Shown here in pieces: positions 7,543 through 27,436 of a stretch of 27,436 nucleotides of DNA. Below the pieces are notes generated by a model that had not been told where the DNA came from, did no database searches, and saw only the letters and a program-made list of their open reading frames with translations. The DNA comes from Bacillota bacterium (GTDB lineage Bacteria > Bacillota_A > Clostridia > Lutisporales > Lutisporaceae), in assembly GCA_022706865.1 (NCBI GenBank), contig JAKJBT010000010.1, positions 1 through 27,436 of the forward strand, in the 5' to 3' direction. The translations under genes were made by a program, and so were the position numbers. How positions within the stretch are numbered: position 1 is the first letter of the stretch; each line of letters opens with the position of its first letter.

Positions 7543-7562
7543 TGAATATAAATATATAAGTT

Positions 7563-7676
7563 TTCCGAGTCATCCCTTCTAAAGGTATCCATGAAGCGAT
7601 GACCGATGGGCAAGTCCCATAAGGGTTCAGGGAGAAATCCCCGGGCCTCCCGTGTTAGGAAAGGAAAATGTTTTGT
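7563..7676 (+). ncRNA. Moco/Tuco-type riboswitch candidate
   Basis: A GC-richer leader between the promoter and the tup genes. Visible helices are GTCATC (7569-7574) with GATGAC (7598-7603), ATGGG (7606-7610) with CCCAT (7616-7620) around a 5-nt loop, and a GGGAG...CTCCC pairing around the conserved-looking GGGCCTCCCGTG (7642-7653). From memory these match the Moco RNA motif, a cofactor-sensing leader found upstream of molybdate/tungstate transport and pterin cofactor genes. A strong terminator follows at 7690, so control would be by premature termination when cofactor is plentiful. Family assignment rests on remembered features and context, not on a covariance search. Confidence 0.7.
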
Positions 7677-7689
7677 TAAATTCTGCTGA

Positions 7690-13785: not shown

Positions 13786-14766
13786 ATGAAGGATGAATTA
13801 GGGCGAAATATAAATTATTTGCGAATATCAGTCACAGACAGGTGCAATCTCAGATGCCGCTACTGCATGCCTGAGGAGGGCATAGAGAAGAAGGAGCATA
13901 TGGATATACTGGCTCTTGAGGAAATATTTGAGGTAGTAAAGGTATGTGCAGATCTGGGTACAAATAAAATAAGGATTACAGGAGGAGAGCCCCTTGTAAG
14001 GAAGGGACTTACGGGGCTTATTGAGAGGATTGCAGCTCTTGAAAGTATAAAGGATTTGGCGCTTACCACAAATGGAAGCCTTCTTAGGAGATATGCCCGC
14101 GATTTAAAAAAAGCAGGACTCAAAAGAATAAATATAAGCCTGGATACCATGGATGATAAAAAGTATGAATATTTGACCAGGGGAGGGAAACTCAAAGATG
14201 TCCTGGAGGGTTTCCGCGAGGCATTGGAGGTTGGCCTGGAACCCATTAAAATCAATACAGTGCTTACAAAAGGCTTCAATGATGATGAAATCGGGGATTT
14301 CATAAAGCTTACACAAAATTATGACATTGATGTCCGATTTATTGAGCTAATGCCTTTAGGGCATGCCGCCGGCTTTGCATCGGAGCATTACATTTCCAAT
14401 CTAGTGGTGCTGGAAAGATATAAGGAGCTGGAACCGGTGGAAGCAACCGATAAAAGCAGTCCTGCGATGTATTACCGGCTGCCCGGCGCAAAGGGAAGAG
14501 TAGGGCTTATTAATCCCATAAGCCACAAATTCTGTGACAATTGCAACAGGCTGAGGCTTACTGCAGACGGAAAACTGAAGCCATGCTTGCATTCCAATCT
14601 GGAGATAGATGTAAGAGGGATCCTCCGGAATCTAAAGGCTGACGATAAGCAGACGGCATTGAGGGAGGCTGTTGTGGAAGCTGTACAAGCAAAGCCCGGA
14701 CACCACACACTGAATGATCTTTATAACAAGCCCATTGATCGTGATATGTACACAATAGGCGGATAA
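13786..14766 (+). CDS. moaA: GTP 3',8-cyclase MoaA
   Basis: 326 residues. Radical SAM cluster cysteines are C20, C24 and C27 (CNLRCRYC). The second [4Fe-4S] cluster near the C-terminus uses C250, C253 and C267 (FCDNCNRLRLTADGKLKPC), and the chain ends in the typical GG (MYTIGG). MoaA starts pterin cofactor synthesis by converting GTP to 3',8-cyclo-7,8-dihydro-GTP, which MoaC then rearranges. moaC, moaD and moaE are not in this window. GGAGG sits upstream of the ATG. The MOSC gene follows after 18 bp. Confidence 0.95.
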   Translation: MKDELGRNINYLRISVTDRCNLRCRYCMPEEGIEKKEHMDILALEEIFEVVKVCADLGTNKIRITGGEPLVRKGLTGLIERIAALESIKDLALTTNGSLLRRYARDLKKAGLKRINISLDTMDDKKYEYLTRGGKLKDVLEGFREALEVGLEPIKINTVLTKGFNDDEIGDFIKLTQNYDIDVRFIELMPLGHAAGFASEHYISNLVVLERYKELEPVEATDKSSPAMYYRLPGAKGRVGLINPISHKFCDNCNRLRLTADGKLKPCLHSNLEIDVRGILRNLKADDKQTALREAVVEAVQAKPGHHTLNDLYNKPIDRDMYTIGG

Positions 14767-15906: not shown

Positions 15907-17001
15907 TTGTCAATTTGTGTGAGAAAGGGAAAGCCGGGAGTGCTGGAGCTTGTGTTTCCATATAATGAGGAATATATTGCTAAAGTCAAAGGAATACCAG
16001 GGCGCAGATGGGATAAGGACAACAAGAAATGGCTGATACCGGATTGTGAGGAGTCCATTAATAAATTACAGGAGCTGTTTACAAAAGAAGAACTGGTTAT
16101 TGCGAAAGGTATTTCAGACAGTGAAAAAGCCGGAATGTATGATGAGAACAGCTCCAATGACAAGTTTCTAAGAAAGATGAAAGAAGTACTCAATCTTAGG
16201 GGATACAGTCAAAAAACCATTAAGTCATATATGAGTCATGCAAGGTTGTTTCTCGAGTGTTGCGGCAAGAATGCCGATTTGATAGGTGATGAAGATATCA
16301 ACAAATATATGCTATACCTGCTGGAAGAACAACAGACCTCCCACTCTTATGTAAATCAAGCAGCAAATTCAATAAAATTCCTCTATAATAATGTATTCAA
16401 AAGAAATGAATTAGCTATAAGAGTAATTAGGCCAAAGAGTGAGAAAAAGCTTCCGGAAGTCTTGAGCCAGAAGGATGTTTTGAGAATATTGAATAATGTA
16501 AGCAATATTAAGCATAAGGCTCTATTATACCTTATCTATTCAGCAGGGCTAAGGGTCGGAGAAGTAGTCAGACTTAGAATTATAGATATAGATAGCACCA
16601 GGATGCTTGTTCATATAGTGCAGGGTAAAGGCAGAAAGGATAGATATACAGTACTTTCTCAAACCGCCTTGGAGGTATTAAGAGAGTATGTAAAAAAGTG
16701 CAGGCCTGAAAAGTGGCTGTTTCAAGGAGCTGATCCGAGCAGGCATATAACCGAGAGAACAGTCCAGAAGATATTTGAAAAAACTAAAGATAAAGCCGGC
16801 ATTCAAAAGAAGGTATCTGTACATACATTGAGACATTCCTTTGCAACTCATCTCTTAGAGGGTGGAGTTGATTTGAGGTATATCCAGGAACTGCTGGGAC
16901 ACCAAAGCAGTAAGACAACAGAGATATATACCCATGTAACTGAGAAGAGTATCAAGAACATACTAAGCCCATTGGATAAGATTATGCTGGGGAAAACCTA
17001 A
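15907..17001 (+). CDS. XerC/D-like tyrosine recombinase, probable cassette integrase
   Basis: 364 residues. The catalytic set is complete: R216, K241, H306, R309, H332 and the nucleophile Y341 (GLRVGEV, QGKGRKDR, HTLRHSFATHLL, LLGHQSSKTTEIYTHV). Residues 80-170 form a SAM-like core-binding domain. An extra N-terminal module (about 10-58) has the IPGRRWDKDNKKWLIP motif also known from Bacteroidetes recombinases annotated as integron-type. The K-to-H spacing is 65 residues, as in XerD (72) and far below IntI1 (106), so the extra domain that defines classical IntI is missing. It starts at TTG 15907 with GAGGGG just upstream. It lies in the same direction as the cassettes, 84 bp before the attI-like site. 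It is the obvious candidate for moving them, but this is inferred. Confidence 0.85.
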   Translation: MSICVRKGKPGVLELVFPYNEEYIAKVKGIPGRRWDKDNKKWLIPDCEESINKLQELFTKEELVIAKGISDSEKAGMYDENSSNDKFLRKMKEVLNLRGYSQKTIKSYMSHARLFLECCGKNADLIGDEDINKYMLYLLEEQQTSHSYVNQAANSIKFLYNNVFKRNELAIRVIRPKSEKKLPEVLSQKDVLRILNNVSNIKHKALLYLIYSAGLRVGEVVRLRIIDIDSTRMLVHIVQGKGRKDRYTVLSQTALEVLREYVKKCRPEKWLFQGADPSRHITERTVQKIFEKTKDKAGIQKKVSVHTLRHSFATHLLEGGVDLRYIQELLGHQSSKTTEIYTHVTEKSIKNILSPLDKIMLGKT

Positions 17002-17017
17002 AACAGACATATAAACA

Positions 17018-17103
17018 TATTGACGAAATATATTCGTAAACACACCTAGCTTTGGATGTATTGACGACATACGTAGTTGCAGTAGTTATATGAAATCATG
17101 CGC
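17018..17103 (+). other. attI-like primary insertion site with two direct repeats
   Basis: The core GTTATATGA (17085-17093) matches the 3' core of all eight cassette sites (consensus GTTAKVYGA). The first cassette therefore begins at 17086. No structured repeat precedes it, which is the attI layout. Two imperfect direct repeats lie just upstream: TATTGACGA followed by ATA...CGTA at 17018 and again at 17059, 41 bp apart. These could be recombinase-binding repeats, as in attI of class 1 integrons. The second includes TTGACG, a possible -35 for a cassette promoter, though no good -10 is evident. The piece 17086-17103 already belongs to cassette 1. Confidence 0.75.
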
Positions 17104-17190
17104 AGAGTGTTGATTTGTTAAGAATTAAAGGATGCGTACCTGTTTATGCATAAATGGGACAACCTATAATAAGTATAAGGAGTAGTAATT

Positions 17191-17943
17191 ATGAGTGATT
17201 TATCTATTAATGAAATTAAAGAAATAAAAACATTAATATCTCAAGCAAAAGGGCTAGAGAAAACGATATTTGAAATATTGAATGACAATACTCCTGAACA
17301 TGCAAGATATTCATCATTTAAAAGTATGGCACTAGTGTATAACGACATTGCAGACCGGGCACAGAAGGTTATGAAATTTGGTAGTTTCTATAAAATGAAC
17401 ACGGACGAAATGAAATCTTGGGCTGATACGCTTTGGCCTGCTTCAAAAAGTATACTTGAGTCTGTTTTGCTTAGTACCCGATTGTTGATTACAACTTTAG
17501 AAAGCAACATTGATTTTATTGGTGAGGAAGTTGACAATATAGAAAACTTTATAAAGACAAAATTGCGAAGTGCTATTTTTGAAATTCCATCAAAAGAAAA
17601 AGAAGTGCAAAATGGAATTGAGACTCTATTTGTTGGTAAAGGTTTTGGCAAAGGAATAGATTATGATAGGGAAACTGGAAAATTCAATTACTCTGGAAGA
17701 GAATACATTCCTGATTTTATTTTACCAAAACTAAGAATGTGTATTGAAGTAAAATTGATCAAAGAAGCTTCGAAAAAATCCAAGATAATTGAAGAAATCA
17801 ATGCAGATATAACGGCATATAAAAAAGAATATGAAAATTTATTATTCGTTGTATACGATATTGGGATAATCAGAGATGAAACAGAGTTCTGTAGGGATAT
17901 AGAAAACAATGATAATGTTAAGATTGTTATTGTAAAGCATTAA
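17191..17943 (+). CDS. Cassette 1: PD-(D/E)XK nuclease-like protein
   Basis: 250 residues. The N-terminal half is helical with no motif I recognise. The C-terminal half (about 120-250) looks like a restriction-endonuclease-type fold: a helix with EKEVQNGIETLF, then IPDF (P174, D175), ten residues, and EVK (E186, K188), which fits the PD-(D/E)XK catalytic pattern, followed by a strand LLFVVYDIGII. This resembles the nuclease domains of DpnII/MboI-like and related defence proteins. The sequence specificity and partner are unknown, and no methyltransferase is nearby. AAGGAG precedes the ATG. Base composition is clearly more AT-rich than the genes before 15,650. Confidence 0.65.
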   Translation: MSDLSINEIKEIKTLISQAKGLEKTIFEILNDNTPEHARYSSFKSMALVYNDIADRAQKVMKFGSFYKMNTDEMKSWADTLWPASKSILESVLLSTRLLITTLESNIDFIGEEVDNIENFIKTKLRSAIFEIPSKEKEVQNGIETLFVGKGFGKGIDYDRETGKFNYSGREYIPDFILPKLRMCIEVKLIKEASKKSKIIEEINADITAYKKEYENLLFVVYDIGIIRDETEFCRDIENNDNVKIVIVKH

Positions 17944-18012
17944 GAAATTGTGAACCAATTTTTTCATAGAGAAAATATGTAGCCTGATATTATTACAGAA
18001 GGGCTTCGAGGG

Positions 18013-18228
18013 GCGCATGACTTCACATAACAATGCCCTCACGCTGCGGCACGTAGGGCTGGGACAAGTAGTATGCGTGCCTTGGGTTGCGAAGGATTGA
18101 CAAACTATAGAATTTCTTAAGCAGCAACCACACCCCTTCACCGGGAGCGGAGCTCCGCCAGGGGGAAGGGCTCAGAGGTCCGGTTCAGTGGTGTCGTGAG
18201 TGCGGAACCGTTAGCTGACAGATAATGC
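18013..18228 (+). repeat. attC-like site 1 (type A)
   Basis: The core runs from ACATAAC (18025-18031) to GTTAGCT (18210-18216). The last 19 nt of cassette 1 (18013-18031) pair with its first 19 nt (17085-17103) at 17 positions. Internal helices are CTCACG (18038-18043) with CGTGAG (18195-18200), GGCACG (18048-18053) with CGTGCC (18076-18081), GGTTGC (18085-18090) with GCAACC (18124-18129), and a CCCCTT-type arm holding a GGAG/CTCC hairpin. Loops vary between copies and stems do not. Confidence 0.85.
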
Positions 18229-18318
18229 AGATTGATTCATGTAAAATTACTATTCTTATATTGCGTATAGGTAGAATTATATGTGATGAGGATTATTTAT
18301 ATTTTATGAGGTTAAGTT

Positions 18319-18906
18319 ATGAAAAAAGTGCTTCTAATAATTATCGCTGTTGCTATTCTGTGCGTAGCATGTGTTGAAAAAGAAAGTCAACCAAATGTAG
18401 AAAATGTAATACAAGATACAACCCCTAAAAACGAAACCAAGACTTCTCTTTCTCCTACTGGTAAGTATCTTGCTGAAGCATATGGCACAATTACTACTAT
18501 TACAGCAGGGGGACTTTATCCCTATGAGGGTATTCGCGTGTTGGACACAGATAATGATGAAGTCCTTTGGAAAATGGAGCCTGGATATTATACCGTAGAT
18601 TTTACATGGTCACCTGATGGTCGCTATGTAGGAATTTATTACGAAGCACGGATTTATGGAGAAAGTGTTGTTTTTGATACAAAGGATAAAAAATTAATAT
18701 CAATGCCCACACTGGTTAATATTGCTCCTCACTACAGTGAAAGTGTGAAGCCGCAAGAAGATCGACCTGACCAATATTTCAGTATAACTGGATGGGAGAA
18801 TGCAGAAACGGTAATTGTAGATTTTCGTTGGAGTAAGGAAGATGGCGAATATTTCAAAGGACAATATACTTTAAATATGAAAACACATATTGTGTCATAT
18901 AAATAG
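18319..18906 (+). CDS. Cassette 2: secreted lipoprotein with propeller-like repeats
   Basis: 195 residues. A hydrophobic N-terminus (MKKVLLIIIAVAILCVAC) ends in Cys 18 in an imperfect lipobox (CVAC), so lipid anchoring at the membrane is probable. The rest contains SPTGKYLAEAYG and, later, WSPDGRYVGIYYE, the blade motif of TolB/WD40-like propellers, spaced about 60 residues apart. Too few blades are present for a full propeller. I do not recognise a specific family. The start ATG follows a weak GAGGTTAA site. The gene is 109 bp from the crossover point of attC-like site 1. Confidence 0.6.
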   Translation: MKKVLLIIIAVAILCVACVEKESQPNVENVIQDTTPKNETKTSLSPTGKYLAEAYGTITTITAGGLYPYEGIRVLDTDNDEVLWKMEPGYYTVDFTWSPDGRYVGIYYEARIYGESVVFDTKDKKLISMPTLVNIAPHYSESVKPQEDRPDQYFSITGWENAETVIVDFRWSKEDGEYFKGQYTLNMKTHIVSYK

Positions 18907-18911
18907 TGGTG

Positions 18912-19036
18912 CAAACTCCTATGCGGAGTTTGTGAGATATATAAACCCAAGGGAGACAATGTTTACAGAAGCGACTCATGTCAGGTCCCGGGTACCGGCA
19001 GTGGTATACAAAGGTTATTGAGCGAGGCTTCGAGGG
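18912..19036 (+). repeat. Cassette 3' module shared with cassette 8 (copy 1)
   Basis: The non-coding end of cassette 2 begins with a perfect hairpin, CAAACTCC (18912-18919), loop TATGC, GGAGTTTG (18925-18932). It then carries AGGTCCCGGGTACCGGCA (about 18983-19000) and a GGTAT stretch. The same elements in the same order occur at the end of cassette 8 (26827-26951) but not in the other cassettes. No T run follows the hairpin, so it does not look like a terminator. Confidence 0.6.
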
Positions 19037-19248
19037 GCATTATCCATCAGCTAACAATGCCCTCACGCTGCGGCACGAAGGGAAAGAGCAAGGAGCGTGC
19101 GTGCCTTGGGTTGCCGGACGCATTTGCTCTGGAGTAAGGTCAGGGCAACCACACCCCTTCACCGGGTGTGACCACCGCCAGGGAGAATGACTTTGAGGTC
19201 CGGTTCAGCGGTGTCGTGAGTGCGGAACCGTTAGGCGACATATCATGC
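19037..19248 (+). repeat. attC-like site 2 (type A)
   Basis: The core runs from AGCTAAC (19049-19055) to GTTAGGC (19230-19236). The end of cassette 2 (19037-19055) pairs with its start (18210-18228) at 17 of 19 positions; pairing with the 3' side present in the array is weaker. The third internal hairpin is GGTG/CACC here instead of GGAG/CTCC, a compensatory change. Confidence 0.85.
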
Positions 19249-19324
19249 GAAATGTTGTATAACCCTTAACTTGGAATAATAAAACAATGTGCTGAATTAT
19301 ATTACCTGAATGGAGTGGTTAGGA

Positions 19325-20113
19325 TTGAGTAAGAACAGAAAGAAAAATCTTACTGAGGCTCTAATTATACAAATGCAACAGTTAAAAGATTCAAGGGATA
19401 GAGCTATTGATAAATATTACTTGAGTTTTATTATAAACATTTATAGAGAAATGACATTTAGAGAGCATGTAAGAAAAATCACTGAAAGCTTTAATAATAA
19501 TCGGGATATATATAATTCTTCAGTTTCATATAGCATTATATCAATCATAAGCTGTTGGGAAACTTTCTTTAGAGACATTTTTGTTTTCATTATTAATACT
19601 GATAATGAAGTTAGAGATAAATTATTAGAGAGCGTTGACATTGCAATGAGTAGTAAAATTCAAGAATCGGGAACGGTGGCAGACTACTTTAGTAAGCTCT
19701 ACAATTTTCAAAGTATAAATGACATTAAAGAAGCATTCAATTTGGTTCTAAACGAGAAAGATATATTTCAGACTATAGGGGGAGTTATAATTCCTTTCAC
19801 TAAAAACGAAGAAATTTATAAGTTTTCCTTAAACCATTCATTTCCTAAATGGTTTGATTATGTAGAGTTGATGTTTCAAGAAAGGCATAGAATTGTTCAT
19901 GATGCAAACTACAGAACAGAAATAAGTCTAAAGGAGCTTGAAAAAGCAGAAAACGCATTTTTGTATTTCCCGCAGATTTATGCGTTTTGGTTAAATGGTA
20001 GATTTAATACGGGAGCAAACATTATTGCTACAGAGATTAAGGAGTATACTATACCATCATTGATGACAAGAGAGTTAATGCTGGATGGTAGTTGGTATAT
20101 ACTTAATAACTAA
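19325..20113 (+). CDS. Cassette 3: HEPN-like domain protein
   Basis: About 262 residues, mostly helical. The motif ERHRIVHDANYR holds R187 and H192 (R-x4-H), the signature of HEPN ribonuclease domains such as the RiboL-PSP/MAE_28990-like groups. The preceding SIISIISCWETFFRDIFVFI helix fits such domains. HEPN proteins often act as RNA-cleaving toxins or defence effectors. No antitoxin or nucleotidyltransferase partner is present in the cassette. TTG at 19325 is preferred as start because GGAGTGG lies just before it; an in-frame ATG at 19310 lacks a ribosome binding site. AT-rich. Activity is unproven. Confidence 0.6.
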   Translation: MSKNRKKNLTEALIIQMQQLKDSRDRAIDKYYLSFIINIYREMTFREHVRKITESFNNNRDIYNSSVSYSIISIISCWETFFRDIFVFIINTDNEVRDKLLESVDIAMSSKIQESGTVADYFSKLYNFQSINDIKEAFNLVLNEKDIFQTIGGVIIPFTKNEEIYKFSLNHSFPKWFDYVELMFQERHRIVHDANYRTEISLKELEKAENAFLYFPQIYAFWLNGRFNTGANIIATEIKEYTIPSLMTRELMLDGSWYILNN

Positions 20114-20173
20114 AGTGTTTGAGCTGAAGGTATTATGTGGACTAATAATAGATTTTAAGTAATGCTACGTGGG

Positions 20174-20385
20174 GCATGATCCATCGCCTAACAATGCCCT
20201 CACGCTGCGGCACGACGGGCAGGGGCAAGGAGCAAGCGTGCCTTGGGTTGCAGATGCCATTGCTCTGGAGGAGGAGCAGCAACCACACCCCTTCACCGAG
20301 AGCGGAGCTCCGCCAAGGGGACAGGCTGTGCGGGTCCGGTTCAGAGGTGTCGTGAGTGCGAACCCGTTAGGCGAAACAAATGAAT
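20174..20385 (+). repeat. attC-like site 3 (type A)
   Basis: The core runs from GCCTAAC (20186-20192) to GTTAGGC (20366-20372). The end of cassette 3 (20174-20192) pairs with its start (19230-19248) at 16 of 19 positions. The arm CCCCTT...AAGGGG is perfect here. A 72-codon reading frame across the site (20169-20387) recurs in part in site 2 because the repeat is conserved, and is not counted as a gene. Confidence 0.85.
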
Positions 20386-20398
20386 AGAGGTGGAAAAG

Positions 20399-21688
20399 AT
20401 GGAAAAATCAAATAGTGAATTGAAAATTTATGCCTATGGATTTTTAGAAGCAGGTTTTAAGATTCCTAGAGACGAGTTTATTGATGTGGATGGATTGGGT
20501 ACAATTGAATTTGTTGGTTTTGATGACAAGAGAAACCTTGATGAAGTAGATGGATTAATTATTCCACAGGGAGTTTTTGAAAAGATAGAACGTGCTCCAA
20601 ATGAATGGGGAGAGATCTATACAGATATAAGTTCTCAGGGAGATTTGCTTTTAGAAAAAGAAAGACAAGTACTAAATTTAATCAATGAGGGAAAATGGAT
20701 TTGCTTCCTTGTGGGAGAGATTATTGACCAAGTTCCGCAAGGATTATCAAGTCAAGATATAAGAGATACAGATCTATGCAAGAGAATATTAAACAGATAT
20801 CGGATTCAACGCAGTAGTATGACTCCTAATTCAGATACTAAGGCTAAATATAACGAGTTTTTTTCTTACATTAAGCAATATGGTGTAGCTAAAACTTTAT
20901 TTCGGAGTTATTCATTTAATGATAAGGAAATAAACATATTAGCTGAAGCAAATGGTAATCCAGTTGGAATCGAGATTGATAATCAAGTGTTTTTTGTGCC
21001 TTTTCATTCACCACGTAATGATTATGAGACGACAGAGAATATCGTATCATTATTAGGGCGCGCATTATATGACTATATACAGAAAAATACAATATATATA
21101 CCAAAATGGCTGGAAGAGTTTCAATTTAAAGTAGAGAAAAGTATAAGGAAAGAGATTATTGAAATAACTGAAAGACAGAACACTTTAGAGAATGATTTAA
21201 TCCGTTGGATTAATTACAAAGCTATTTTAACTACATCTGGAAATGTATTAAAAAAGATAGTTATTGAAATAATGCAGGACTTTTTTGAATTTCATATAGA
21301 TCCAATTGATGAGGGGCGAGAGGATTTTAAAATAGTAAATGAAGAGGGTGAAGTTCTCGCAGTCGTTGAAGTAAAAGGAACAAAGAAGGGAATAAAAAGA
21401 GAACATATAAATCAGGCTGACTCACACAGAGAAAGGAATGATTTACCTAGCTCTATTCCAAGTATTTTGATTATTAATAATGAGATGGGAATATCAGGTT
21501 TAAAAGGGAAAATTGAATCTGATGTTCCGGATGAGCAAATTAAACATGCAAGAAACTTAAATGTTCTGATAGTGAGAACGATAGACTTACTGTTATTTAT
21601 GTCAAGAATGGAGAATGTAAATGATAGAAAAGAAGTTTTCTTAGATAAAATTAGGTCAGAATCCGGATGGATTAATATAAAAGAATAG
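20399..21688 (+). CDS. Cassette 4: PD-(D/E)XK nuclease-like protein
   Basis: About 429 residues. I do not recognise the N-terminal two thirds, which begin LKIYAYGFLEAGFKIPRDEF and include a predicted mixed alpha/beta region. The C-terminal third (about 285-415) has a candidate PD-(D/E)XK site, GREDFKI (D309) then VVEVKG (E324, K326), with NQADSH downstream, as in Mrr-like and other restriction-type nucleases. This suggests a DNA- or RNA-degrading defence protein; the link is by motif only. ATG 20399 is chosen, with AGAGGTGG upstream; a GTG nine bases earlier is possible. The start is only 32 bp after the crossover point, so it depends on an outside or very short promoter. Confidence 0.55.
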   Translation: MEKSNSELKIYAYGFLEAGFKIPRDEFIDVDGLGTIEFVGFDDKRNLDEVDGLIIPQGVFEKIERAPNEWGEIYTDISSQGDLLLEKERQVLNLINEGKWICFLVGEIIDQVPQGLSSQDIRDTDLCKRILNRYRIQRSSMTPNSDTKAKYNEFFSYIKQYGVAKTLFRSYSFNDKEINILAEANGNPVGIEIDNQVFFVPFHSPRNDYETTENIVSLLGRALYDYIQKNTIYIPKWLEEFQFKVEKSIRKEIIEITERQNTLENDLIRWINYKAILTTSGNVLKKIVIEIMQDFFEFHIDPIDEGREDFKIVNEEGEVLAVVEVKGTKKGIKREHINQADSHRERNDLPSSIPSILIINNEMGISGLKGKIESDVPDEQIKHARNLNVLIVRTIDLLLFMSRMENVNDRKEVFLDKIRSESGWINIKE

Positions 21689-21699
21689 TATAGTTGTAA

Positions 21700-21918
21700 A
21701 TTCATTTGCATCGCCTAACAATGCGCTCACGCTGCGGCACGGCGTGACGGGGCAAGAAGCATGCGTGCCTTGGGTTGCAGAGGATTTGCTAAACTATAGT
21801 TTGAATTAAGTAGCAACCACACCCCTTCACCGGGAGCGGAGCTCCGCCAAGGGGTGGGGCTATGCAGGTTCGGTTCAGGGGCGTCGTGAGTGCGAACCCG
21901 TTATACGAAATCGGTCGC
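21700..21918 (+). repeat. attC-like site 4 (type A core, followed by a type B cassette start)
   Basis: The core runs from GCCTAAC (21713-21719) to GTTATAC (21900-21906). The end of cassette 4 (21700-21719) pairs with its start (20366-20385) at 18 of 20 positions, the best match in the array. Its own 3' side belongs to cassette 5 and matches far less. Just beyond lies a small hairpin, CCGCG (21924-21928) with CGCGG (21938-21942), also present after site 5. Confidence 0.87.
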
Positions 21919-22052
21919 AAGGACCGCGCCGTCCTGACGCGGATTGTGAAAGTGGGTATTAGGCATAATTTATTACTATACGGCTTAAATTATTGCAGAA
22001 AAGTTGATTATTGTTGCTGAAGAGAATATAAAATGATAGGAGATTTAAACAT

Positions 22053-22922
22053 ATGGTACAACACTTTGTTTGCATAATTTTTGTTTGCATACTAGCCATC
22101 CTTTTTATATTTCTTCCTTACTTTCCAGGTGGATATGACCATTTGGCTGTAATGATTTCTAGTATTATTCAGATTGCAAGCTTTATTTCTCTGTTGCTTG
22201 TCCCTGTTGGTATCTTATGGTTTATATATGAAAGGGTACAGAGAAAAAAAGGTAAAAACGGCTCAAGAAAATGCGTAAGCTTTGCTATTACGGGTCAGAT
22301 TGTGCTAAGTTTAATAGTTATTGTTTGTTCATTAGCAGCTATTGGTGGTATTGGCAATTTTCGAGGCTCTTTAATGTTGGGCGTTTTTCTACCTATAATT
22401 TTTGTTTGCTATACAAATTCACTAATTATCCCCCGGATAAAGCAAATGAAAAATTCGGATACACATAGACAAAGTTTTATCCCGTTGTATATGATAATCA
22501 TTCCAATAGTTGTTGTTATATTCCGTGTAACTCTTATATCCCCTGCAATAAATTACAGCACGAACTATGCTATCGAGCAGAGTGCTCCATTGATACAGGA
22601 TCTAGAGGAATACTACTCAAAAACCGGGCAATACCCTGTTTCACTGCAAGGATTATGGAAAGACTATTCTCCCAATGTAATGGGTATAGAAAGATACTAT
22701 TATGAACCAAACGGTGAGGCTTATAACCTATTCTTTGAACAGTTTTCCTCTGATTTCTCTGCGCGGGAAATTGTCATGTACAATAAGTTTGATGAACACA
22801 TTATTAGAAGCCACCCAAGTTTTATTTTTACTCTTCCACCTGAAGAATTTGAAAGATACAGAGGATATTTTGCCGAATTTGATTTACCGAAACCGCATTG
22901 GAAATATTTTTTATTCGATTGA
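22053..22922 (+). CDS. Cassette 5: multi-pass membrane protein of unknown function
   Basis: 289 residues with five likely membrane helices (about 4-24, 31-60, 73-98, 106-127 and 142-168), then an outside domain of some 120 residues. That domain starts with a long helix (APLIQDLEEYYSKTGQYP). The EEYYSKTGQYP stretch looks like the region after the N-terminal helix in type II pseudopilin-like proteins, but the fold here is not that of a pilin. I do not recognise a family. AGGAGATT precedes the ATG. About 210 bp of non-coding sequence separate the stop from the cassette end, in which I see no gene. Confidence 0.55.
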   Translation: MVQHFVCIIFVCILAILFIFLPYFPGGYDHLAVMISSIIQIASFISLLLVPVGILWFIYERVQRKKGKNGSRKCVSFAITGQIVLSLIVIVCSLAAIGGIGNFRGSLMLGVFLPIIFVCYTNSLIIPRIKQMKNSDTHRQSFIPLYMIIIPIVVVIFRVTLISPAINYSTNYAIEQSAPLIQDLEEYYSKTGQYPVSLQGLWKDYSPNVMGIERYYYEPNGEAYNLFFEQFSSDFSAREIVMYNKFDEHIIRSHPSFIFTLPPEEFERYRGYFAEFDLPKPHWKYFLFD

Positions 22923-23132
22923 TACTGTAAGGCTGGATTTGCCTCCCGATCGGATTAAAGTCAAACCTATTCTTTTAATAAAACAATATGTCATTGTAAA
23001 TTCCGTGACCGAGATACTTACAATTCTAACGAAATATCTACTTTCATCAAACCAGATAAGTAATGTTTGATTACTCCATTGTTTAATACTATGTCTAAGG
23101 AGTCGCCGTCCATGGCGACGCTGAAGTTCGGG

Positions 23133-23361
23133 GCGACCAACTTCGGATAACATTGCATTGCCGCAGGGCGCGGAATAGCAAGGTCAGCGGGGGCTAGGGC
23201 ATTGGGCGGGGCTGGAGCGTGCCGCGCACATCCCCCGGCCTAAGTCAGGCATGACCCGGCTTGCCCGGGTCTAAGATTTGGCAAGCAAAACGTAAGGCCC
23301 GGCCATCGCCTTAAGGCCGGGGAACGTCGGCAATGCGTGGCCGTTAGGTGAAATTGGTCGC
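23133..23361 (+). repeat. attC-like site 5 (type B, divergent core)
   Basis: The core runs from GGATAAC (23145-23151) to GTTAGGT (23343-23349), the longest in the array. The cassette 5 ends (23133-23151 and 21900-21918) pair at 16 of 19. The inner stem is GCATTGCC (23155-23162) with GGCAATGC (23329-23336), a different sequence from type A with the same pairing. Strong internal hairpins include GACCCGG/CCGGGTC and CCCGGCC/GGCCGGG. Just upstream is a hairpin GTCGCC-GTCCAT-GGCGAC (23102-23119). Confidence 0.8.
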
Positions 23362-23525
23362 AAAGACCGCGCCGTCCATGACGCGGGCTGTGTAAATAGG
23401 TTTGAAGGTTTTTTTGATTTAAAGTTCCAGTTATTTATATTTAACGAAGAAAGTAATTTCAAATAATTACTTGCGATCTAAGAGTTTCGCTTGCCAAAAT
23501 CAAAACAAATGAAAGGGGAAAAATA

Positions 23526-24290
23526 ATGAAGAAACTAATTACCGTGTTGTTGACCTTTGTTTTATTATTGCAACTCTCCGCCTGCACTGGGAAGCCGCAA
23601 TCCTCTGATTCCTCTCAAATTGATGAACCTGTAATTATCAATTTTACAGATCTGTATCTTGAAGAAGGTATACGTGCGGCAATGAACAAATCGACCGGCG
23701 ATATCACGGTCAGTGATGCCGAGATGGTTACTGTACTTGATCTCAGCAATAAGGATTGGGATACAATGAACGCCAAAAACGGCGGGATTAAGGACATTAG
23801 TGATCTGAAGTATTTTACAAATTTAACGGAACTGCATTTGGATTTGAATGACATACAGGATTTCTCTCCATTGTCGACCTTGACGCAGCTCTCCACATTG
23901 ACTTTCAACGGCGTTAGAGCAAAAGATTTGTCTCCTCTTAAAAGCCTCACCAATATGGTTACCCTTGGATTTAGCTGGAGTTATGCACCCGACCAAGGGC
24001 ATTATGGTTATGAAAATATTGATTTCATGGCAGATATGAAAAAGCTGGAAGTATTCGAAGCACGCAATGCCGGGATTAAAGACATCGCAGTCCTTGGAGA
24101 ATTACCCAAACTGTGGAGTGTGTTTATATCTGACAACCTAATCACAGATGTCAGCCCGCTTGCAAAATTAGACCTAAAGGAGTTTTCGCTTGCCAACAAC
24201 CCTATAACAGATTACAGCTCTATCACCCCTATCAGAGAAGTGTTTCCCAACCTGTGGACAGATTTCGAGCCAGATGTCAACATCGAATAA
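23526..24290 (+). CDS. Cassette 6: leucine-rich-repeat lipoprotein
   Basis: 254 residues. A lipoprotein signal peptide ends in LSAC with Cys 20. The mature part has a short N-terminal cap and then about six leucine-rich repeats (NLTELHLDLNDIQDFSPLST, QLSTLTFNG, NMVTLGFSW, KLEVFEARNAGIKDIAVLG, KLWSVFISDNLITDVSPLA and DLKEFSLANNPITD). The repeat type is the internalin-like, 22-residue kind. It would be exposed on the outside of the cell and bind another protein; no partner is suggested. GGGGAA lies upstream of the ATG. The 5' leader of this cassette, about 180 nt after the crossover, is unusually long. Confidence 0.75.
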   Translation: MKKLITVLLTFVLLLQLSACTGKPQSSDSSQIDEPVIINFTDLYLEEGIRAAMNKSTGDITVSDAEMVTVLDLSNKDWDTMNAKNGGIKDISDLKYFTNLTELHLDLNDIQDFSPLSTLTQLSTLTFNGVRAKDLSPLKSLTNMVTLGFSWSYAPDQGHYGYENIDFMADMKKLEVFEARNAGIKDIAVLGELPKLWSVFISDNLITDVSPLAKLDLKEFSLANNPITDYSSITPIREVFPNLWTDFEPDVNIE

Positions 24291-24442
24291 TATTCGTATT
24301 TCGTTTCTACTCTGTTTGGGATGAACAAAATGAGCATAATATGATGTTTGAAGATCCAGACATGCTGATCTTCCTAATTCATTTCGAATTGTTTATTTTG
24401 AATTTGAGGAGTCGCCCTCCATGGCGACTTCTGAGTATGGGG

Positions 24443-24634
24443 GCGACCAACTCCACTTAACAATGCCTTCCCATTCGGCGCGAAAAGTAGGCTCATCGTG
24501 GGTAAGATTAAGGGCAAGGCTGAAGTGTGCGCGCCACACCCCTTCGCCGGGTGCAAGTACCGCCAAAGAAGAAGGGCTCTAAGGGTCCGGCTTAGGGGCA
24601 TCGGGAAGCCGGAACGTTATACGAAACCATACGC
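24443..24634 (+). repeat. attC-like site 6 (type A/B hybrid)
   Basis: The core runs from ACTTAAC (24455-24461) to GTTATAC (24616-24622). The cassette 6 ends (24443-24461 and 23343-23361) pair at 16 of 19. The inner stem is CTTCCC with GGGAAG, and the first hairpin GGCGCG (24477-24482) with CGCGCC (24530-24535), both replacing type A stems with compensatory changes. The second hairpin (GGTTGC type) is absent. An upstream hairpin GTCGCC-CTCCAT-GGCGAC (24411-24428) matches that before site 5. Confidence 0.82.
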
Positions 24635-24741
24635 AAGAGACCGCGCGTCCATGCGCAGATTTTTAAGTGGGAAGCCTTGTTGCTATAAAAGAATTGGTTA
24701 TTCAGCGCAATAGAACTTATAATTTCAGGAGGAATGAGCAA

Positions 24742-25752
24742 ATGTATGTTCCAATTTATCAACTTACTCTCTATGATTATATAGAGGCTCAGGAAGCCCA
24801 GGATAGGTGGCAGAAAAATAGTGAATTGCACGATTATATTATAGATTTAATCAGAAAAGGGGCTGGTGAGGACTTTCTCCAGTGGGATTTTGAACGTGGT
24901 AAATTAAAAGGTTTTCTCAGAGACATGTGGGATTTAAGAGGAATATTATTCCAAGGTGAGAATATCACATTCCCAGACGAAGATAATTTTGAGACAATAG
25001 ATTTTTCATACGGACAGTTTTATAACAGTACCTTCATTAATTGTTACTTTCGATCAACATTCAATTTTGCCAGACTGTATGGTTGCAAATTTATAAACTG
25101 TACTTTTCATTTTACAACTTGGTTAGGTTGTTCAATTGAAAAGTGTAAATTCGAACACTGTGATTTCATTGAATACACGTCTTTGAGAAACTGTGATATA
25201 AAAGATTCTAGCTTTAAGCATTATTTTTCATCCGATTGCTTGTTTGATGATTGTAGATTTGATTCAAATTGTATAGTTGCTGATCCAGAACTGTTACCAA
25301 ATGGCAGGGTACAAATCAAATTTGATGTTAAACAATTCGGCGATTTCTTTACATCCATCAGTGAGGCATATAAGGCAGGAGGCATATATGATAAAGGACG
25401 AAAGTACTTTTACATGTCAAGAAAAGCCAGAACTTGTTACAATAGTACTGGCCTAATAAACTATTTTCTAAATAAGCTTAATGAAATGCTAACAGGTTAC
25501 GGTGTAAAACCGCTGAGACCTATAATTAATTTGCTAATTATATTATTTTTATGTTCAGGAATTTTTACATTACATACAAGGAGTATATACAATTCAATAA
25601 TCATCAGCGTAAGTGCTTTGTTTACAATGGGTGATAGCACTTTATATCCATTTCCTTATGACATGATTTATTTAGCTGAAGGCTTTCTTGGGATAGTTTT
25701 TTTAGGGTTTTACTTAACTGTTTTAGCTAATGTGTGGTTTTCACAACGATAA
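24742..25752 (+). CDS. Cassette 7: pentapeptide-repeat protein with an ion-channel-like C-terminus
   Basis: 336 residues. About residues 88-177 hold irregular pentapeptide-like repeats rich in F and C (FINCYFRS, CKFINCTFHF, CKFEHCDFIE and CLFDDCRFDS), which usually form a right-handed beta-helix. The C-terminus has a helix (260-278), a re-entrant segment SALFTMGDS (about 292-300) like a K+-channel pore loop, and a second helix (308-332). Pentapeptide plus two-helix channel architectures are known in bacteria and may gate ion flux, perhaps in defence; the role here is inferred. ATG 24742 has AGGAGG just before it; upstream in-frame starts lack one. Confidence 0.65.
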   Translation: MYVPIYQLTLYDYIEAQEAQDRWQKNSELHDYIIDLIRKGAGEDFLQWDFERGKLKGFLRDMWDLRGILFQGENITFPDEDNFETIDFSYGQFYNSTFINCYFRSTFNFARLYGCKFINCTFHFTTWLGCSIEKCKFEHCDFIEYTSLRNCDIKDSSFKHYFSSDCLFDDCRFDSNCIVADPELLPNGRVQIKFDVKQFGDFFTSISEAYKAGGIYDKGRKYFYMSRKARTCYNSTGLINYFLNKLNEMLTGYGVKPLRPIINLLIILFLCSGIFTLHTRSIYNSIIISVSALFTMGDSTLYPFPYDMIYLAEGFLGIVFLGFYLTVLANVWFSQR

Positions 25753-25926
25753 AACGCCCTTGTATGGATTAACGTGTAGATTTAGCGACATATGTATATA
25801 ATGAAATTACGCACAAATTTTCGAGACTTTGGGTATTATCATTACATTTGATTTTTGTTATGTAAAGTTAATGATTATGGATGGTTTAAGGGGCCGCTGT
25901 CCGTGGCGACCTCGGGCTCCGTAAGA

Positions 25927-26115
25927 CGTATGGCTTCGTATAACATTGCACTCACGAGGTATAAATCTACAGAGCGTAGTAAGTTACAGAGAGGTTTTCT
26001 ACTAAACCTTCGGGTTACATCCCTTCACCGGGTGTCACCACCGCCATGGGGGAGGGCTCTGCGCGTCCGGTTCAGTGGCGTCGTGAGTGCGAAACCGTTA
26101 TCTGACATATGGTGC
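25927..26115 (+). repeat. attC-like site 7 (type A, shortened)
   Basis: The core runs from GTATAAC (25938-25944) to GTTATCT (26097-26103). The cassette 7 ends (25927-25944 and 24616-24633) pair at 17 of 18. The inner stem GCACTCACG/CGTGAGTGC is perfect, unlike type A copies with one mismatch. The first two type A hairpins are replaced by other sequence that can form AACC-TTCG-GGTT. The GGTG/CACC hairpin and the 3' end are kept. Confidence 0.82.
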
Positions 26116-26234
26116 AGATTGATTACTATTTATGAGGATGTTCCAGTAGTACATATCAGTAGAAGAATGCGAAGTGTTAAAATTAAGAACGACTTTTGGT
26201 AATACATCTTTACCATAGGGAGGATGGAGTTTAT

Positions 26235-26549
26235 ATGGATAAGCAAATGATTGGAATGTGCGGTACATACTGTGGTGTATGTGAATGGAAAGAAAAAACA
26301 AACTGTCCTGGCTGTCAAGCCTGTCTAGGTAAACCATTTTGGGGAGAATGCTCTATTGCAAAATGTTCAATTAATAAGGGATATAATCATTGTGGACATT
26401 GTTCAAATTTATCATGTGATAAATTACAGGATGCATATAATAATGAAGAGCATGGTGATAATGGTGAAAGGTTAATTAATTTAAAGAATTGGACATGTGG
26501 TAAGGAAACCTATTTAAGATTAAGAACACTAAAATTGGATAAAGAGTAG
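26235..26549 (+). CDS. Cassette 8, gene 1: DUF3795 Cys-rich protein
   Basis: 104 residues with cysteines arranged as CGTYCGVC near the N-terminus, then CPGCQAC, GECSIAKCS and CGHCSNLSCDKL, as in the DUF3795 family. The spacing suggests bound zinc or an iron-sulfur cluster. The function of the family is unknown; members are common in clostridial and archaeal genomes. ATG 26235 is chosen, with GGAG four to eight bases before it. The second gene of the cassette follows 69 bp later in the same direction. Confidence 0.75.
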   Translation: MDKQMIGMCGTYCGVCEWKEKTNCPGCQACLGKPFWGECSIAKCSINKGYNHCGHCSNLSCDKLQDAYNNEEHGDNGERLINLKNWTCGKETYLRLRTLKLDKE

Positions 26550-26618
26550 TCAGTTTAGACATATTTTTCTTATATTGTGAAGGAATGAACAAATATAAAA
26601 TTTGGAGGTTACATTTAC

Positions 26619-26807
26619 ATGTATGAATATAAATTTATAAGATTAGGGATGAAGGGATTTTTTGTAAGAAAGCCAGATCAAGACTATCATGCCATAATAG
26701 AAGAATATTCAAGAGAAGGTTGGAGATTAGTGCAAATTTTGACCCCACCAATAGGTTCCTATGGTGTGGCTACATATTTTGAATTAATATTTGAAAAACA
26801 AATCTAA
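26619..26807 (+). CDS. Cassette 8, gene 2: DUF4177 small protein
   Basis: 62 residues. The pattern YEYKFIRLG, a central REGWRLVQIL and a C-terminal strand YFELIFEKQ matches the small DUF4177 family, whose role is unknown. GGAGG precedes the ATG by 12 nt. It is the only case in the window of two genes in one cassette. Confidence 0.7.
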   Translation: MYEYKFIRLGMKGFFVRKPDQDYHAIIEEYSREGWRLVQILTPPIGSYGVATYFELIFEKQI

Positions 26808-26826
26808 GCTGTTTTTTTACAATGTA

Positions 26827-26951
26827 CAAACTCCCATGCGGAGTTTGTTGGAGATTTGAACCCTAGAGAGATAATACTTACACAAGTGACACAAGTTAGG
26901 TCCCGGGTACCGGCAACGGTATAGAAAGACATTAGGGAAATGCGCTGAGGG
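26827..26951 (+). repeat. Cassette 3' module shared with cassette 2 (copy 2)
   Basis: CAAACTCC (26827-26834), loop CATGC, GGAGTTTG (26840-26847), then AGGTCCCGGGTACCGGCA (about 26898-26915) and GGTAT. The layout and most bases agree with 18912-19036 at the end of cassette 2, although the genes upstream are unrelated. Confidence 0.6.
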
Positions 26952-27167
26952 GCACCATACATCAGATAACAATGCCCTCACGCGGCGGCACGGCGGTTCG
27001 AGGCAAGAGGTAGGCGTGCCTTGGGTTGCAAAGATATGCAATACTATAGTTTGACTTAAGCAGCAACCACACCCCTTCACCGGGAGCGAATCTCCGCCAG
27101 GAGGACAGGCTCTGTGGGTCCGGTTCAGAGGTGTCATGAGTGCGAACCGTTAGCTGACAGATAATGC
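26952..27167 (+). repeat. attC-like site 8 (type A)
   Basis: The core runs from AGATAAC (26964-26970) to GTTAGCT (27149-27155). The cassette 8 ends (26952-26970 and 26097-26115) pair at 17 of 19. The third hairpin keeps GGAG/CTCC but its loop is CGAAT instead of CGGAG, so only the loop has changed. The 3' inner arm reads CATGAG, one mismatch from the usual CGTGAG. Confidence 0.83.
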
Positions 27168-27430
27168 AGATTGTCCTGTTCTATAGGAAAAAGTAGAACT
27201 ATTGAAGGGATTCAAAAACAATACAGATTTTCTAGAGTATTAGCTGTATTAAGCATTATTCTTATGCTGTATATCAGTAGAAAACTACTTAGCTGAGAAA
27301 ATTCATATAATAGGAGCATTCCTGTAAAGAAAAACAATGAACTTTGAAAAAGTAGACGCCTGACACTAAAATAGTATTGTGCTGATCCAGACAAGAAAGG
27401 CACAAAACTAAAATAATGGAGGCGTCATAT
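27168..27430 (+). other. Start of cassette 9, non-coding
   Basis: AT-rich sequence from the cassette start to a ribosome binding site. I see no gene, RNA or repeat here. The cassette opens with the same 21 nt as cassette 2. Confidence 0.5.
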
Positions 27431-27436
27431 ATGAAG
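27431..27436 (+). CDS. Cassette 9: start of a gene, two codons visible
   Basis: ATGAAG at the very end of the window is preceded by TGGAGGCG at the right distance for a ribosome binding site (about 27418-27425). The product cannot be told. Confidence 0.45.

What the first reader, a model, noticed from the sequence alone, without database searches (positions are those of the whole stretch)
15907..27436. A complete integron-like system in a clostridial chromosome
A tyrosine recombinase gene, an attI-like site 84 bp downstream and at least eight unrelated one- or two-gene cassettes, each ended by a structured repeat with RYYYAAC-like and GTTRRRY-like cores, all in one orientation. To my knowledge full integrons are rare or unreported in Bacillota, and the sites (about 170-210 bp) are longer than most attC sites.
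Basis: partly seen in the sequence, partly recalled or inferred. Interest (0 to 1): 0.95.

Follow-up and report, generated by a model that had tools for sequence, protein, structure and literature searches.

The report
Integron-like array with I2-less integrase
A recombinase gene is followed by eight gene cassettes whose two ends match each other, likely shuffled the way integrons shuffle genes, but the enzyme lacks the extra domain by which integron integrases are recognised; relatives followed by similar cassettes occur in assemblies from several phyla, so this may be an overlooked, possibly older, kind of integron.

Summary
In detail: a tyrosine recombinase (15907-17001), an attI-like junction at 17085 and eight cassettes, last junction 27149. 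The sites are real cassette borders: each cassette's end arm pairs with its own start (102 of 128 scored bases), not the next start (53 of 128); 2 of 362,880 pairings reach this, and transposon copies between fixed genes would not do that. In a relative's array one 663-bp cassette occurs twice, identical, with both breaks at G|TT.

It fails the usual definition of an integron. The 50 family recombinases aligned lack the roughly 41-residue I2 insertion present in 12 of 12 reference IntIs. Folded sites pair over 19 bases instead of 11 and mostly lack single extrahelical bases (10 of 78 sites, against 33 of 34 in one IntI array). Paired first cassettes follow relatives assigned to eight named phyla.

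Most likely the recombinase inserts and excises circular cassettes through a folded bottom strand; anatomy is shown, activity inferred. The tree puts IntI inside this family, but an AU test does not confirm it. Eight searches of one open-access library listed no description. New variant of a known kind; high interest.

The parts
15907..17001 (+). tyrosine recombinase, 364 aa: N-terminal domain (1-68, weakly HARP-like), SAM-like core-binding domain (87-166), catalytic domain (185-346); no I2 insertion
17002..17103 (+). attI-like region: dyad acgaaatatattcgt ending 47 nt before the junction; cassette junction G|TT at 17085
17086..18210 (+). cassette 1, gene 17191-17943 (DpnII-MboI REase-like, weak PADLOC helical-REase match); site 18013-18228
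18211..19230 (+). cassette 2, gene 18319-18906 (PD40 match; lipoprotein-like start by eye); site 19037-19248
19231..20366 (+). cassette 3, gene 19310-20113 (RiboL-PSP-HEPN); site 20174-20384
20367..21900 (+). cassette 4, gene 20390-21688 (432 aa, no Pfam match at E 0.01); site 21701-21918
21901..23343 (+). cassette 5, gene 22053-22922 (289 aa, no Pfam match at E 0.01); site 23133-23361
23344..24616 (+). cassette 6, gene 23526-24290 (leucine-rich-repeat protein); site 24443-24634
24617..26097 (+). cassette 7, gene 24667-25752 (weak pentapeptide-repeat matches); site 25926-26115
26098..27149 (+). cassette 8, genes 26196-26549 (DUF3795) and 26619-26807 (62 aa); site 26952-27167
27150..27436 (+). 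start of a ninth cassette, cut by the window end; its first 25 nt, counted from GTT, equal those of cassette 2
   Evidence: sequence

Best explanation
The stretch is an integron-like platform: a tyrosine recombinase without the integron-specific I2 domain lies beside an attI-like junction and eight gene cassettes whose own two ends are complementary, and the recombinase likely inserts and excises each cassette as a circle by cutting one folded strand at G|TT. In the circle the two ends of a cassette would join to one site whose bottom strand folds into a hairpin: a 19-bp end stem (cassette start with cassette end, with a conserved T.G wobble at position 11), a one-sided bulge of a few nt, and an inner stem. 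Insertion at the attI-like junction next to the recombinase would put the newest cassette first; repeated insertion would build the array. Shown: the units, their borders, own-end pairing, an exact duplicated unit in a relative's array, the missing I2 insertion and the predicted geometry of the sites. Inferred: that this recombinase acts on these sites, that it uses the folded bottom strand, and, as a guess only, that its HARP-like N-terminal domain helps to recognise the folded site.
For: Own-end pairing in the window: 102 of 128 scored bases with the own start, 53 of 128 with the next start; 2 of 362,880 pairings reach it. Borders in relatives: in G163 a 663-bp cassette occurs twice at 100% identity; only 6 nt left of the first GTT and GTTA at the next are shared, and the flanks are at background (64.3% and 62.7% by global alignment). 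In G024 a pair matches at 99.0% over 626 nt, the full unit. In L124 the unit at the attI-like junction and one inside the array are identical in their first 25 nt from GTT and match at 94% over 805 nt further in. Sites located by inner motifs only in five other arrays: own start is the best partner, ties counted, for 39 of 49 cassettes. First-cassette test (72 loci, window included): at least 11 of 14 pairs in 40 of 72, against 28 of 1,080 shuffles. Anchored chains beyond all 20 shuffles in 28 of 75 loci. Longest ORF on the recombinase's strand in 118 of 133 cassettes with an ORF of 80 aa or more (149 cassettes pooled). Contigs end within 2 kb on the array side in 42 of 80 loci and on the other side in 9 of 80, as repeats would cause. 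Bottom strand folds better in 22 of 24 G163 sites (mean -28.3 against -24.0 kcal/mol) and 16 of 20 in G024. Best PDB match is integron integrase IntI4, 2a3v, by sequence and by Foldseek.
Against: No recombination was observed. The window's own sites show no mean strand preference (-43.9 bottom, -44.0 top; lower on the bottom in 6 of 8). 32 of 72 loci fail the first-cassette test, 17 of them Bacteroidota, and 47 of 75 fail the chain test: not every relative shows such an array, or its sites differ too much. The N-terminal domain is not always there: 46 of 50 family rows have it, and L108, beside a good array, has 12 of its 49 scored columns. L121 has three linked units (spacing 64-65 nt) about 4.4 kb downstream of a short recombinase without that domain, with no other recombinase-like ORF in 14.4 kb. 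No LexA-box excess upstream (6 of 79 against 7.0 expected).
Confidence: 0.78

Rival explanations
1. Ordinary integron: the recombinase is an IntI that has lost its I2 domain in this lineage, and the sites are ordinary attC sites.
For: TIGR02249 (integron integrase) scores 222.9 bits; IntI4 is the best PDB match; the G|TT border, the G after AAC on the bottom strand (8 of 8 window sites) and an unpaired spacer agree with attC. The AU test does not settle where IntI branches.
Against: TIGR02249's cut-off is 265 bits and the matches to it and to IntI4 break in two at the I2 region; the insertion is absent in 50 of 50 family rows from many phyla, not in one lineage; sites pair over 19 instead of 11 bases and single-base bulges are rare.
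Confidence: 0.12
2. The repeats are miniature transposons or RNA-coding repeats inserted between fixed genes, unrelated to the recombinase.
For: Sites are long and similar to each other inside.
Against: The two sides of one repeat would match each other, but each left arm matches the start of its own unit, one repeat back; duplicated units are whole cassettes with exact borders; no Rfam family at gathering threshold covers the sites; paired first cassettes lie beside the recombinase in 40 of 72 loci.
Confidence: 0.02
3. Cassettes are moved by another enzyme (a true IntI elsewhere in the cell or host XerCD) and the neighbouring recombinase does something else, such as dimer resolution.
For: NF040815 (XerA-like) is passed at 233.6 bits (cut-off 220); one genome with this system, G005, also has an IntI; in L121 three linked units lie 4.4 kb from a short recombinase only.
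Against: In the 29 loci listed (picked for a convincing first cassette) the junction lies 75-262 nt after the recombinase; the sites mostly lack the single extrahelical bases that IntI's I2 domain is said to read; the recombinase side of the locus is where contigs break.
Confidence: 0.08

Closest known systems
Integrons with IntI integrases (control: Gemmatirosa kalamazoonensis plasmid array, L187)
   Same: tyrosine recombinase, cassette arrays, G|TT border, cassette ends complementary, G after AAC, unpaired spacer, folding biased to the bottom strand in most arrays (33 of 34 in the control)
   Different: no I2 insertion; an N-terminal domain in 46 of 50 rows; 19-nt instead of 11-nt end stem with a wobble at position 11 (67 of 78 sites); single-base bulges in 10 of 78 against 33 of 34 sites. 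One IntI array is a small control.
XerA/XerCD-type recombinases
   Same: similar length of the I2 region (30-41 aa in 10 Xer rows, 29-31 in the family); NF040815 cut-off passed
   Different: the 10 Xer rows form a separate branch (100/100) and have none of the N-terminal domain (0 of 10); that Xer proteins do not run cassette arrays is recalled, not tested
CTXphi integration through a folded single-stranded site by XerCD
   Same: a hairpin used by enzymes without I2 (PMC4792948, Discussion part 1 read)
   Different: no own recombinase, no cassette array
Short recombinases without the N-terminal domain (L120-L122 and others)
   Same: relatives without I2; L121 has three linked units 4.4 kb downstream
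   Different: 0 of 11 have the N-terminal domain; anchored chains not above shuffles in L120-L122. Kinship with the TnpF gene on plasmids was not tested in a tree.
HARP domain of SMARCAL1 (4o66)
   Same: weak profile match in 21 of 40 rows; top Foldseek match of the N-terminal model
   Different: window match below Pfam's cut-off; Foldseek E 0.037; other folds score as high with VIA-align

Membership tests
Integron (IntI-type) | tyrosine recombinase of the integron integrase kind with the additional (I2) domain | tested here: not met
   50 of 50 family rows have 29-31 aa where 12 of 12 IntIs have 71 (11 of these IntIs had been picked by TIGR02249, which spans the region); window TIGR02249 222.9 bits, cut-off 265
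Integron (IntI-type) | attI-type junction next to the integrase gene | tested here: met
   GTT at 17085 starts cassette 1, whose end pairs with it; 40 of 72 loci
Integron (IntI-type) | array of cassettes with complementary own ends and G|TT borders | tested here: met
Integron (IntI-type) | RYYYAAC/GTTRRRY cores | tested here: inconclusive
   3 of 9 junctions fit GTTRRRY, 9 of 9 fit GTTANNY
Integron (IntI-type) | extrahelical bases in the folded bottom strand | tested here: not met
   predicted single-base bulge in 1 of 8 window sites, 10 of 78 in five arrays; 33 of 34 in the IntI control; predicted folds only
Integron (IntI-type) | bottom-strand recombination | tested here: inconclusive
   folding only: 22 of 24 in G163, 16 of 20 in G024, window 6 of 8 with equal means
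Integron (IntI-type) | SOS (LexA) control | tested here: inconclusive
   simple consensus: 6 of 79 against 7.0 expected
Integron (IntI-type) | attC sites recognised by IntegronFinder's covariance model | not testable with these tools
   model not available
Integron (IntI-type) | cassette excision and integration | not testable with these tools
   needs experiment
XerA (NF040815) | score over the curated cut-off | tested here: met
   233.6 bits, cut-off 220
XerA (NF040815) | dif site and chromosome dimer resolution | not tested
   no host genome held
HARP domain (PF07443) | gathering score | tested here: not met
   window 19 bits, cut-off 25; 21 of 40 relatives match at E up to 1
HARP domain (PF07443) | same fold as the solved HARP domain | tested here: inconclusive

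The most novel reading that the evidence does not exclude
I2-less integrons are the older form: folded cassettes and own-end hairpins existed before the I2 domain, and the classical IntI integrons descend from within this family by gaining I2 together with extrahelical bases. That would answer the chicken-and-egg question of integron origin.
Probability: 0.4. Interest if true: 0.95.

Novelty: new variant of a known kind. Interest (0 to 1): 0.88.

Why it matters
Integron integrases are described as needing the I2 domain, which reads extrahelical bases of attC; Escudero et al. 2016 (PMC4792948, Discussion part 1 read) call it a chicken-and-egg paradox which of the two came first and point to intermediate forms as the way out. 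Here the I2 insertion is absent and single extrahelical bases are rare, while cassettes, borders and folded sites are present. If active, this gives the comparison in nature and makes the question testable. Searches that rely on IntI profiles or standard attC models would likely pass over such arrays, so the reach of cassette exchange in Bacillota, Bacteroidota, Nitrospirota and archaeal assemblies may be underestimated.
Full report
What is there. The window's right half holds a 364-aa tyrosine recombinase (15907-17001, + strand) followed 84 nt later by a GTT junction and then eight units of 1.0-1.5 kb, each with one gene (two in the eighth) and a structured repeat at its end. Site interiors (AAC to GTT) are 155-194 nt. 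A ninth unit starts at 27150 and is cut off.

The sites are cassette borders. For each of the eight left arms (ending in AAC) I counted Watson-Crick pairs with each of the nine right arms (starting with GTT), over positions 5-20. The arm of each unit pairs with the start of its own unit: 102 of 128, against 53 of 128 with the adjoining next start; 2 of 362,880 one-to-one pairings reach 102, the second because starts 2 and 9 are identical there. This includes the junction beside the recombinase, whose partner is the end of cassette 1. A repeat inserted as one piece would pair its own two sides instead. Own-end mismatches include 15 A.C and 1 G.T on the top strand, that is, mostly wobbles on the bottom strand; many fall on one shared position, so they are not independent.

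Units move whole. In genome G163 (25 units called in the first 30 kb, with one 6.4-kb stretch without called units) cassettes 0 and 7 are identical over all 663 bp; 6 nt before the first GTT and GTTA at the next are shared, and the flanks are at background identity. In G024 (genus of Paenibacillus solani's genome) a full-length pair is 99.0% identical over 626 nt. In L124 the unit at the attI-like junction and one inside the array share their first 25 nt from GTT and match at 94% over 805 nt further in; the right border of the second was not determined. Between genomes, G128 and G163 share a cassette at 87% over 557 nt starting at GTT but with different ends, and G024 and G046 share one at 90% over 599 nt. 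None of the eight window cassettes matched a cassette of another genome at 200 nt or more.

How wide. Of 549 confirmed relatives the best 80 loci were kept (37-62% identity in the best segment). In 40 of 72 loci with enough DNA (window, plasmid locus and later-fetched genomes included) the recombinase is followed by a cassette whose two ends pair at 11 or more of 14 positions, against 28 of 1,080 shuffles; 27 of 72 reach 12. The named phyla at 12 or more are Bacillota, Bacteroidota, Nitrospirota, Nitrospinota, Spirochaetota, Aminicenantota, Altarchaeota and that of a Micrarchaeota assembly; most are metagenome bins, so contamination is possible. A chain test anchored at the recombinase passed in 28 of 75. 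Contigs end within 2 kb on the array side in 42 of 80 and on the other side in 9 of 80. 8 of 100 genomes in the genus of L022 match at E up to 1e-80 and 26 of 82 in the class of L002 at 1e-60, 12 of these 26 from residue 16 or before. At least 5,554 proteins match at E up to 1e-60 (7,999 candidates scored, a cap).

The enzyme. The best PDB match is integron integrase IntI4 (2a3v), but in two stretches: residues 182-239 of IntI4 are replaced by 16 residues. In an alignment of 83 recombinases the region is 29-31 aa in 50 of 50 family rows, 71 aa in 12 of 12 IntIs, 30-41 aa in 10 of 10 Xers and 30-31 aa in 11 of 11 short relatives. Eleven of the IntIs had been chosen by a profile that spans the region, so they confirm rather than test its presence. 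Smyshlyaev et al. [quoted passage not shown] The window model is confident (pLDDT 88). Residues 1-68 form a separate domain (pLDDT 91), present in 46 of 50 family rows, 0 of 11 short relatives and 0 of 10 Xers, with weak HARP matches in 21 of 40 and SMARCAL1's HARP domain as the top Foldseek match (E 0.037); other folds score as high with VIA-align. HARP domains are tied to annealing helicase activity (PMC4035279, passages). That it reads the hairpin is a guess, and L108, beside a good array, lacks most of it.

The site. Folded as in a circle, G163 sites typically give one long hairpin with a 4-nt one-sided bulge (14 of 24); the bottom strand is lower in 22 of 24, in G024 in 16 of 20, in the window in 6 of 8 but with equal means. 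Circle-form sites are more stable than the in-array form by 8.8 (window), 8.7 (G163) and 7.0 (G024) kcal/mol, which would favour insertion of circles. As control I used an IntI array on the Gemmatirosa plasmid (35 sites, 34 cassettes): own ends pair at positions 1-11 and predicted single-base bulges occur in 33 of 34. In the five arrays of the family (78 sites) pairing runs to about position 19, lower at 10 in the Paenibacillus arrays, with A.C (bottom T.G) at position 11 in 67 of 78, and single-base bulges in 10 of 78. Missing I2 and missing extrahelical bases thus go together in this comparison. Four of the five arrays had been found by end pairing; with inner motifs only, own start is the best partner in 39 of 49 and position 11 is A.C in 45 of 49.

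Origin. With Xer as outgroup, IntI (100/100) lies inside the family (98/93 and 97/98), next to I2-less rows several of which pass the first-cassette test. The AU test does not reject IntI outside the family (p 0.419) nor the family alone as a clade (p 0.336). So this stays a lead.

Verdict. It works like an integron and fails the tested definition of an IntI integron. I call it a new variant: an I2-less integron. Activity, strand use and the role of the N-terminal domain are inferred.

Noticed in passing
window 7551-7682: Molybdenum/tungsten cofactor riboswitch (RF01055, 88.2 bits) in the left half of the window; the ORF 13786-14766 looks like moaA by eye (not tested).
   Followed up: no
L081:14944-30984: Chryseobacterium plasmid with a family recombinase followed mostly by same-strand genes, with IS110 and group II intron genes among them; first-cassette test 12 of 14, chain test not above shuffles: possibly a plasmid-borne version.
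   Followed up: partly
L029, L039, L043, L054 recombinases: Some Bacteroidota relatives have recombinases of 544-576 aa, much longer than the window's 364.
   Followed up: no
L011:10979-12044: Site of Alkaliphilus pronyensis shares the inner motif CCCTTCACCGGGAGCG with several of the window's long sites.
   Followed up: no
L181 and L012 (genome G005): One genome assigned to Nitrospirota carries both an IntI with I2 and the I2-less system.
   Followed up: partly
L111 (genome G111): Array with sites that read in both orientations and 18 of 18 paired ends, suggesting inverted array pieces.
   Followed up: no
L121:6500-9000 approximately: Three linked cassette-like units (spacing 64-65 nt) about 4.4 kb downstream of a short recombinase without the N-terminal domain; no other recombinase-like ORF in 14.4 kb.
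   Followed up: partly
about 5-12 and 44-56 nt before the first GTT in L005, L012, L115, L124 and others: Two short dyads at similar distances before the attI-like junction: two separate dyads in 9 of 28 loci, 2.4 expected.
   Followed up: partly
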